From Candidatus Methylomirabilota bacterium (GTDB lineage Bacteria; Methylomirabilota; Methylomirabilia; Methylomirabilales; CSP1-5), in NCBI GenBank assembly GCA_027293415.1, contig JAPUFX010000083.1, forward strand, positions 1 through 39,401: DNA of 39,401 nucleotides, written 5' to 3'. A model generated the notes under the pieces. That model saw only the letters and a list, made by a program, of their open reading frames with translations. It did no database searches and had not been told where the DNA came from. Shown here in pieces: positions 35,237-37,351 of the stretch. The position numbers and the translations under genes are program-made. Each line of letters starts with the position of its first letter. Positions within the stretch are counted from its first letter, which is position 1.

Positions 35237-35307
35237 GCCGGATTGGGTGGATTTCCCTTGACGGGTGGAGCTTCCGGTCATCAGAATAGCCCCGAGTGGA
35301 GGGTGTT

Positions 35308-37173
35308 ATGAAGCAGGTAGAACCGCAGATCTTTCTCCTGGCCCGGCCGGCGATCAATGATGAAGGGCTTACCGCGTATCTGCAAGCGGTGGGTGCCTCT
35401 GGCTGGGACACCGATGCCCCCTCGGGAGCTGAGAAGCTCATCGAAATCGCCGGACGGTCCTGTTATCGGTCCTTTGAGCCGGGTCTCAATCCCAATGTCA
35501 CCAAGGTCCGGGAGGGGAGCAAGGCCTACCTCGAAAACATTCTGAGCGTCAAGCACGGCAGCGTCCTGGAGCATGCTAGCTGGAGCTTTGCTTTCTTCAA
35601 TGTCAGTCGCGTGTTCTGTTATGACGCGGATACCGAGGTGTTAACCTCCGAGGGATGGAAACCCTGGCCCAAGGTGGATGGAACCGAGCTCTTCGCTACG
35701 CTCAACCCCGATACTGACAGGTTGGAGTACCAACGGGCTGAGGAACACTTCGGGTCTAAATACGATGGGCCTATGTACAGGATATGCTCCGAACAGGTTG
35801 ATCTACTTGTAACGCCACAGCATCGGATGTGGGTCAGAAAGTTTGACACGCAGGCGGCAAAGCGCGGGGAGCAGCCCTACCGAATCGAGCTAGCATCAGG
35901 GATTATGGGCAAAAGGGTCCAGTACCAGAAGACGGCGCGGTGGGAGGGCCAGGATGGAGGCGTCATTCGTGTACCTGGCACCTATCGGACATACCAGCGA
36001 CACGACCGGGATCGTACAGCAACACGTTACTATCCCGGAGCAGAGTTCCCTGCCGAGCCTTTTGCTCGATTCCTTGGGCATTGGTTGGCCGAAGGCAGTA
36101 TCAACGGGCACCAGATCGTTCTGGCCCAAAATAGAGGTCCGGCACTTGAAGCGATGGCCGAGAACATCCGGGCTATGGGCTTACCGGCCTACATTCCAGC
36201 AACTGGGCCTGGGAATGTGCGAACCCAGCATACTGCTTTGCGTGATTTTCTTGTTTCGTGCAGCGTTGGTGCTCATTACAAACGAGTGCCCGGCCTCGTG
36301 CATTCATGGGGCCCTAAACTGATTCGCATTCTCCTCGAAGCCCTAGTTGAGGGTGATGGGAGCAAACGCAAGGATGCCCATCACTGGGTCATCTACACCA
36401 CGTCTCCTGACATGGCCGATGATATCCAGGTGCTTGCCATTAAAGCGGGATGGTCAGCTAACATCCGCTTGGATGACCGAACTGGTTTGGAACGCCGGAT
36501 GAAAAGTGGCCAAGTGTTCAAGAACCTGCGTCCCTGCTATATCGTCTCTTTGGTCAAGAGACGTACTCATCCGCTCGTCAACCACGGCGGTAAACGCCAT
36601 GACAGAATCGTCTACTACAGCGGAACGATTCATTGCGTGAAGGTGCCAAACGGGCTTCTGTTTGTGCGTCGAAATGGGAAGCCGGTAGTGTCCGGGAACA
36701 CCCACGAACTTGTGAGGCATCGGGCCGGGACCGCGATCAGTCAAGAGAGCCTCCGCTTCGTGCGCCTGACAGAGATCGGGATGTGGCTGCCACCCGACAT
36801 CCGTGAGAATCCTGAGGCGCTGGCACTCTTCGAAGAGGCCGTCCGGAAGAGTGAGGAGGCTCAGCAGCGAATGGCGGACGTCCTGGCGATCGAAGGGCGA
36901 CCATTCCACGAAAAGAAGGTCCTCACCTCAGCCATGCGTCGTGTCGCCCCCGACGGGTTAGCGACCACGATCATCTGGTCGGCCAACGCCAGGACACTCC
37001 GGTGGGTCATCGAGGCCCGGACCGAGCCGGGGGCCGAGGTGGAGATCCGCCTGGTATTCGGAAAGGTGGCCGAGATCATGAAAAAAGAGGCACCACACCT
37101 GTTTGGCGACTTCAAAGAGATCCCCCTCCCCGATGGCACCTTCCAGTGGCAACCCGAGCATAGCAAGGTCTAG
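35308..37173 (+). CDS. thyX: FAD-dependent thymidylate synthase ThyX, interrupted by an intein
   Basis: A 621-residue precursor. The ThyX part is residues 1-103 plus 465-621, about 260 residues as expected. It makes dTMP from dUMP with FAD, NAD(P)H and methylene-folate. The catalytic/FAD motif lies at 470-483 (RHRAGTAISQESLR), a RHRx..SxxS-type variant; HGSVLEHASWSFAFFNVSRVF precedes the intein. The intein occupies residues 104-464. The second ThyX half ends with LVFGKVAEIMKKEAPHLFGDF. ATG 35308 follows GGAGGGTG; GTG 35296 could add four residues. Splicing is needed for a working enzyme, because the insertion sits one residue before the THELVRHR core. Confidence 0.93.
   Translation: MKQVEPQIFLLARPAINDEGLTAYLQAVGASGWDTDAPSGAEKLIEIAGRSCYRSFEPGLNPNVTKVREGSKAYLENILSVKHGSVLEHASWSFAFFNVSRVFCYDADTEVLTSEGWKPWPKVDGTELFATLNPDTDRLEYQRAEEHFGSKYDGPMYRICSEQVDLLVTPQHRMWVRKFDTQAAKRGEQPYRIELASGIMGKRVQYQKTARWEGQDGGVIRVPGTYRTYQRHDRDRTATRYYPGAEFPAEPFARFLGHWLAEGSINGHQIVLAQNRGPALEAMAENIRAMGLPAYIPATGPGNVRTQHTALRDFLVSCSVGAHYKRVPGLVHSWGPKLIRILLEALVEGDGSKRKDAHHWVIYTTSPDMADDIQVLAIKAGWSANIRLDDRTGLERRMKSGQVFKNLRPCYIVSLVKRRTHPLVNHGGKRHDRIVYYSGTIHCVKVPNGLLFVRRNGKPVVSGNTHELVRHRAGTAISQESLRFVRLTEIGMWLPPDIRENPEALALFEEAVRKSEEAQQRMADVLAIEGRPFHEKKVLTSAMRRVAPDGLATTIIWSANARTLRWVIEARTEPGAEVEIRLVFGKVAEIMKKEAPHLFGDFKEIPLPDGTFQWQPEHSKV
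35617..36699 (+). mobile_element. in-frame intein with LAGLIDADG homing endonuclease domain in thyX
   Basis: A 361-residue insertion from Cys104 to Asn464 of the precursor. Splicing-domain features: N-terminal Cys (CYDADTEVLTSEGWKPW), block B TPQH (Thr169-His172), C-terminal VVSGN with Asn as the last residue, then Thr465 as the first extein residue (+1). Endonuclease features: two LAGLIDADG-like (DOD) motifs, FLGHWLAEGSI (255-265) and LLEALVEGDG (342-351). The residue before the terminal Asn is Gly, not the usual His. The element is probably a mobile intein at a conserved site of ThyX. Confidence 0.92.
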
Positions 37174-37351
37174 ATTCGCTGAGTTCCGACAGATCATCCA
37201 TGAGATCCGCGACGGCTCCTTCGCTCGGGATCTTTTGGAAGAGCAACGGAATAACTACCCTCGGCTTCGCGCCATGACCGAGGCGGCCCGCGCCAACGAT
37301 TTGACGGGCACTGAAGCGCGCCTCCGCCAACTCCTCAAGCTCGCAGTGTAA
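37167..37351 (+). pseudogene. remnant resembling the C-terminal end of ketol-acid reductoisomerase (IlvC)
   Basis: A frame of about 60 residues ending at TAA 37351 (the same frame is open from inside the end of thyX). The readable part EIRDGSFARDLLEEQ, RPRL-type and ALTGTEARLRQLL region matches the pattern of the last helices of IlvC (EIQxGxFAxE.. and VGxxLRxMM). It has no ATG of its own at the expected place and no N-terminal dinucleotide domain, so it is best read as a broken 3' fragment or a short relic. It starts 6 bases before the thyX stop. Homology is judged by eye only. Confidence 0.4.

What the first reader, a model, noticed from the sequence alone, without database searches (positions are those of the whole stretch)
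35617..36699. Intein with LAGLIDADG endonuclease inside thyX, at the active-site motif
Seen: a 361-residue in-frame insertion from a Cys to an Asn followed by Thr, two DOD-type motifs (FLGHWLAEGSI and LLEALVEGDG), and a block B TPQH. It splits thyX one residue before THELVRHR. Known: inteins favour conserved active-site positions of nucleotide-metabolism enzymes. Inference: dTMP synthesis depends on splicing, and the endonuclease may still home, so related strains may lack the intein.
Basis: partly seen in the sequence, partly recalled or inferred. Interest (0 to 1): 0.75.

Follow-up and report, generated by a model that had tools for sequence, protein, structure and literature searches.

The report
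Mobile intein inside essential thyX gene
The genome's only detectable thymidylate synthase gene carries a self-splicing protein element with its own DNA-cutting enzyme, which sister species lack and which has close relatives at the same spot in Actinobacteria; it is a clear example of a known kind of mobile element.

Summary
ORF 35308 (or 35296)-37173 is a thyX gene interrupted in frame by a 361-residue intein (35617-36699, Cys1...Gly-Asn361, +1 Thr) carrying a two-motif LAGLIDADG endonuclease. Sister genomes of the same genus show the empty site to the base: the collinear G003 contig aligns at 93-96% on both sides and lacks only the intein. This is the only detectable thymidylate synthase in the draft genome (no ThyA, no thymidine kinase), so dTMP synthesis very probably needs splicing. 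A DNA pattern spanning the 3' junction found inteins at the same ThyX site in 12 of 12 matching viral contigs and 9 of 16 matching genome contigs (Nocardiopsis, Streptomonospora, Actinocorallia, Thermoleophilia MAGs, one archaeal MAG). Bacterial ones are 62-70% identical to this intein, while their ThyX exteins are only 53-60% identical to ours: the intein moved between phyla apart from its host gene. Among carriers the endonuclease region is under purifying selection. The penultimate residue is Gly, not His, in all relatives. ThyX inteins have been known since 2004 (Trichodesmium); that of phage P1201 sits at another site. Splicing and homing are inferred, not shown. Ordinary in kind, clean as an example.

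The parts
35308..37173 (+). thyX precursor gene with intein (621 aa from ATG 35308; GTG 35296 is the longest frame)
   Evidence: open frame; PF02511 E 3.7e-35; joined exteins 107.3 bits on TIGR02170, cut-off 87.9
35298..35303 (+). GGAGGG, probable ribosome-binding site for ATG 35308
   Evidence: read in sequence; the four residues upstream of the ATG are not well conserved in sister genomes
35308..35616 (+). N-extein of ThyX, ends ...NVSRVF
   Evidence: 85-92% protein identity to uninterrupted ThyX of same-genus genomes
35617..36699 (+). class 1 intein with LAGLIDADG endonuclease, 361 aa
   Evidence: absent from the collinear contig of G003; family alignment; AlphaFold2 model pLDDT 90.7, best solved matches are endonuclease-bearing VMA inteins and PI-SceI
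35617..35655 (+). block A, CYDADTEVLTSEG, Cys1 nucleophile
   Evidence: Cys1 invariant in 17 same-site inteins; coordinates
35797..35835 (+). block B, VDLLVTPQHRMWV with Thr66 and His69
   Evidence: Thr66 and His69 invariant; coordinates
36070..36102 (+). first LAGLIDADG motif FLGHWLAEGSI, acidic Glu159
36331..36363 (+). second LAGLIDADG motif LLEALVEGDGS, acidic Asp247
   Evidence: PF14528 match; Asp247 nearly invariant; coordinates
36613..36651 (+). block F YYSGTIHCVKVPN
36667..36699 (+). block G RRNGKPVVSGN, penultimate Gly360 and terminal Asn361
   Evidence: Gly-Asn invariant in 17 same-site inteins
36700..37170 (+). C-extein of ThyX, begins THELVRHRAGTAISQESLRF (Thr is the +1 residue)
   Evidence: 88-96% protein identity to uninterrupted ThyX of same-genus genomes; Pfam Thy1

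Best explanation
A class 1 intein of 361 residues with an embedded double-motif LAGLIDADG homing endonuclease sits in the genome's only detectable thymidylate synthase gene, thyX. After translation Cys1 attacks the preceding peptide bond, the N-extein is passed to Thr+1, Asn361 cyclises (with Gly, not His, before it) and the two parts of ThyX are joined into a 260-residue enzyme. The endonuclease is inferred to cut intein-free thyX alleles at the junction sequence, so that the element is copied in by repair. It entered this lineage after the split from its sister species, by horizontal transfer from a source close to actinobacterial thyX inteins. Shown here: gene structure, exact empty sites, related inteins at the same site in other phyla, purifying selection on the endonuclease among carriers. 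Inferred: splicing, DNA cutting, direction and vehicle of transfer.
For: Thy1 on both sides and LAGLIDADG inside; exteins joined pass the thyX equivalog cut-off; same-genus empty sites exact to the base and collinear flanks; only thymidylate synthase, no thymidine kinase; same-site inteins in viruses, Actinobacteria and an archaeal MAG; intein identity 62-70% against extein 53-60% to bacterial carriers, reversed between close carriers; intein and extein trees disagree on the window's neighbours; endonuclease dN/dS about 0.07-0.08 in close carrier pairs; confident intein fold with endonuclease-bearing VMA inteins as best matches; inteins with penultimate Gly splice (PMC5050341) and the Trichodesmium ThyX mini-intein splices about fully in E. 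coli (PMC3620165).
Against: No direct proof of splicing or cutting. The penultimate His is missing. An actinobacterial intein clade that excludes the window copy is not rejected (AU p 0.099), so the donor is open. A draft genome could hide a second thymidylate synthase.
Confidence: 0.93

Rival explanations
1. The intein splices, but its endonuclease is dead, so it is now inherited vertically and no longer homes.
For: Only one genome of the genus carries it. Some viral same-site relatives have lost an acidic residue (L039, L048 first motif; L040 second), and a decayed copy exists in G576, so decay does happen in this family.
Against: Glu159, Asp247 and Lys222 are all present in the window copy; endonuclease dN/dS is low among related carriers; the insert has not been resident in the sister species, which suggests recent arrival.
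Confidence: 0.25
2. The precursor does not splice and thyX is inactive; dTMP comes from another enzyme or from salvage.
For: The penultimate His is absent.
Against: No ThyA, no second ThyX, no thymidine kinase found; splicing residues are invariant across relatives; the exteins keep 94% identity to the intact sister protein; penultimate-Gly inteins are known to splice.
Confidence: 0.03
3. The insert is an assembly or binning artefact that joins a foreign intein to a native thyX.
For: The genome is a draft in 221 contigs with 3% estimated contamination.
Against: Both exteins are native to the genus (91% DNA identity to G003) and the flanks over about 13 kb are collinear with G003; the insert is in frame with intact ends.
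Confidence: 0.01

Closest known systems
Same-site ThyX inteins of Actinobacteria (Nocardiopsis, Streptomonospora, Actinocorallia, Solirubrobacteraceae and Thermoleophilaceae MAGs; loci L052-L063, L065-L072)
   Same: Same insertion point directly before THE(L/V)(I/V)RHR, same length, 62-70% intein identity, same GKPVVSGN end, LAGLIDADG endonuclease
   Different: Different host phylum; their ThyX is only 53-60% identical to ours. They were found here by pattern, not in any paper held
Trichodesmium erythraeum ThyX intein (Ter ThyX; Liu and Yang 2004, cited in PMC4913046; PMC3620165)
   Same: Intein in bacterial ThyX; its mini-intein splices nearly completely in E. coli
   Different: Sequence and insertion point could not be compared, the paper is not held
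Corynebacterium phage P1201 ThyX intein (gp22)
   Same: Related intein in a ThyX, LAGLIDADG type, penultimate Gly
   Different: Inserted at another point, KHH|C...N|SVLEH, 19 residues upstream; about 30% identical
Mycobacteriophage class 1 inteins without penultimate His (PMC5050341)
   Same: Class 1 with penultimate Gly; in the RDF intein Gly splices better than the His mutant
   Different: Other host proteins; two mycobacteriophage ThyX inteins are listed there but their site was not checked
PI-SceI and archaeal VMA inteins (1lwt, 7qsu)
   Same: Hint splicing domain with inserted double-motif LAGLIDADG endonuclease; best fold matches
   Different: Other host protein, 10-16% sequence identity, extra DNA-binding parts in PI-SceI

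Membership tests
Class 1 intein | In-frame insert in a conserved host protein, absent from homologues at an exact point | tested here: met
Class 1 intein | Nucleophile at residue 1 (Cys), block B Thr and His, terminal Asn, +1 Cys/Ser/Thr | tested here: met
Class 1 intein | Penultimate His | tested here: not met
   Gly360 here and in all same-site relatives; common but not required: penultimate-Gly class 1 inteins splice (PMC5050341)
Class 1 intein | Hint fold | tested here: met
   AlphaFold2 pLDDT 90.7; Foldseek E 1e-17 to a VMA intein
Class 1 intein | Protein splicing activity | not testable with these tools
   needs expression
Class 3 intein (considered) | No nucleophile at residue 1, and the Trp-Cys-Thr triplet at B12, F4, G5 | tested here: not met
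   Cys1 present; block F Cys340 is invariant, but the B12 and G5 positions read Met and Ser (positions as defined in PMC5050341)
LAGLIDADG homing endonuclease | Two LAGLIDADG motifs with an acidic residue in each | tested here: met
   Glu159 and Asp247; PF14528; profile match to PI-PkoII and PI-SceI
LAGLIDADG homing endonuclease | Cuts the intein-free allele | not testable with these tools
   only indirect: empty alleles exist, low dN/dS among carriers
ThyX, flavin-dependent thymidylate synthase | Thy1 domain above the thyX model cut-off once exteins are joined | tested here: met
   PDB ThyX matches E 7e-23

The most novel reading that the evidence does not exclude
The inteins in both DNA-precursor enzymes of this genome, ThyX and the ribonucleotide reductase on contig C17, act as post-translational switches, so that dNTP supply is set by conditional splicing rather than the inteins being neutral passengers.
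Probability: 0.05. Interest if true: 0.65.

Novelty: new member of a known kind. Interest (0 to 1): 0.3.

Why it matters
It gives an unusually clean case of intein invasion: base-exact empty alleles in sister species, one occupied allele, and 62-70% identical inteins at the same site in another phylum whose host proteins are less alike. The ThyX site before THELVRHR turns out to be a repeated target in bacteria, viruses and an archaeal MAG. Since dTMP synthesis seems to depend on splicing, the gene could serve as a growth-selectable splicing reporter in thyA-minus laboratory E. coli.

Tried and rejected
Phage P1201 as a same-site relative: rejected, its ThyX intein lies 19 residues upstream. 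Close-protein search of viral contigs: no relative; the junction DNA pattern worked instead. Same-site ThyX intein in isolated phages: none seen in two junction searches of the phage collection. Class 3 mechanism: rejected, Cys1 is present and two of the three triplet residues are missing. Assembly artefact: rejected by collinearity with G003. Structure of the precursor: model too poor to use, pLDDT 48. Naming the donor from the tree: not reached, AU p 0.099. The 2004 Trichodesmium paper is not held, so its insertion point was not compared. The remaining 7 of 16 genome-contig pattern hits are not ThyX inteins (no open frame, or short chance frames). The name of the host organism was not established.

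Full report
What is there. The frame 35296-37173 is open and encodes ThyX with a 361-residue insert at 35617-36699. The likely start is ATG 35308, preceded by GGAGGG, giving a 621-aa precursor and a 260-aa spliced enzyme. Pfam sees Thy1 on both sides and LAGLIDADG_3 inside. The joined exteins pass the thyX equivalog cut-off (107.3 bits against 87.9) while the precursor just misses it (85.9).

Empty site. Four of six other genomes of the genus have thyX without the insert, reading NVSRVF-THE(L/I)VRHR in three and NCSRVF-THELVRHR in G003, with the DNA junction exact. G003 is collinear with the window from about 25 to 38 kb; its alignment stops at window 35616 and restarts at 36699 at one and the same base of G003. 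The insert is therefore a discrete element in a native gene, not an assembly join. The other two genomes gave no ThyX match, and none of the seven has ThyA.

Anatomy. Cys1, block B TPQH, LAGLIDADG motifs ending in Glu159 and Asp247, Lys222, block F with Cys340, and GKPVVSGN before Thr. The penultimate residue is Gly here and in all same-site relatives. Such inteins splice, and in a mycobacteriophage RDF intein His in that place slows splicing (PMC5050341). The AlphaFold2 model of the intein is confident (pLDDT 90.7), and its best solved matches are VMA inteins with endonuclease and PI-SceI; a sequence profile finds the same kind of structures.

Dependence on splicing. The genome (estimated 96.5% complete) has one Thy1 gene, no ThyA and no thymidine kinase. 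The insertion lies five residues before RHR of the ThyX signature, so an unspliced precursor is unlikely to work (inference).

Relatives. A DNA pattern across the 3' junction (Gly-Asn-[Thr/Ser/Cys]-His-Glu-x-x-Arg-His-Arg) hit 12 viral contigs, all ThyX inteins at this site, and 16 genome contigs, nine of them ThyX inteins at this site: eight in actinobacterial records and one in a euryarchaeal MAG. Whole precursors were recovered from all nine genomes. The pattern asks for a Gly-Asn end, so same-site inteins with another end would be missed. Carriers are a small minority: about 4 of some 53 ThyX-bearing genomes in the order of G100, and six full-length copies among 251 genomes searched in the family of G101. 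In the window's own phylum (95 genomes held) no other ThyX intein was found; the nearest relative there (37%) sits in a class-III aminotransferase.

Horizontal transfer. Between the window and bacterial carriers the intein is 62-70% identical and the extein 53-60%; between close carriers the order is reversed (81-83% intein, 90-91% extein). The intein tree puts the window copy with Thermoleophilia copies (95/94), while the extein tree puts it next to the empty alleles of its own genus. An actinobacterial clade without the window copy is not rejected (AU p 0.099), so the donor is open. The actinobacterial carriers are not among the held genomes of the window's phylum, so the transfer crossed phyla. 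dN/dS of the endonuclease part is about 0.07-0.08 in close pairs of carriers, which fits a working endonuclease; this is not a measurement on the window copy itself.

Known or new. A ThyX intein was reported from a bacterium in 2004 (Liu and Yang, title cited in PMC4913046, and PMC4649490; the paper itself is not held). The Trichodesmium ThyX mini-intein splices nearly completely in E. coli (PMC3620165). Phage P1201 has a ThyX intein at another site. This is a new member of a known kind, at a site also used by viral and actinobacterial relatives. Whether the Trichodesmium intein uses the same site was not tested.

Side note. The same genome has a second intein, in a ribonucleotide reductase on contig C17, with a canonical His-Asn end. 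Both DNA-precursor enzymes thus seem to depend on splicing. A regulatory role is possible, but nothing here tests it.

Noticed in passing
L132 61-3708 (-), genome contig C17: A second intein in the same genome lies in a ribonucleotide reductase (...EVEATNP|CIAGDTLIST...FVVHN|CGEQPLYPNEACNLGS), so both DNA-precursor enzymes carry inteins.
   Followed up: partly
L123 1501-2326: Genome G576 holds a decayed copy of the ThyX-type intein with a frameshift, a missing first LAGLIDADG motif and a changed block B, and no ThyX match elsewhere in that genome's result: a relic after loss.
   Followed up: partly
L013 1063-2793: A relative of this intein (37%) sits in a class-III aminotransferase of a genome of the same class, ending SGN|C.
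   Followed up: partly
L014, L015, L017, L020, L028; L018, L023, L029; L032: Other genomes of the phylum carry LAGLIDADG inteins in DNA polymerase III alpha, radical SAM proteins and an SMC-type ATPase.
   Followed up: no
window 37103-37351 (+): A short frame overlapping the 3' end of thyX matches only the C-terminal part of ketol-acid reductoisomerase (KARI_C, E 6.8e-8): perhaps a fragment of ilvC.
   Followed up: no
L104 (genome G434): One actinobacterial genome has an intein-bearing ThyX and a second place matching the ThyX C-extein without the intein.
   Followed up: no
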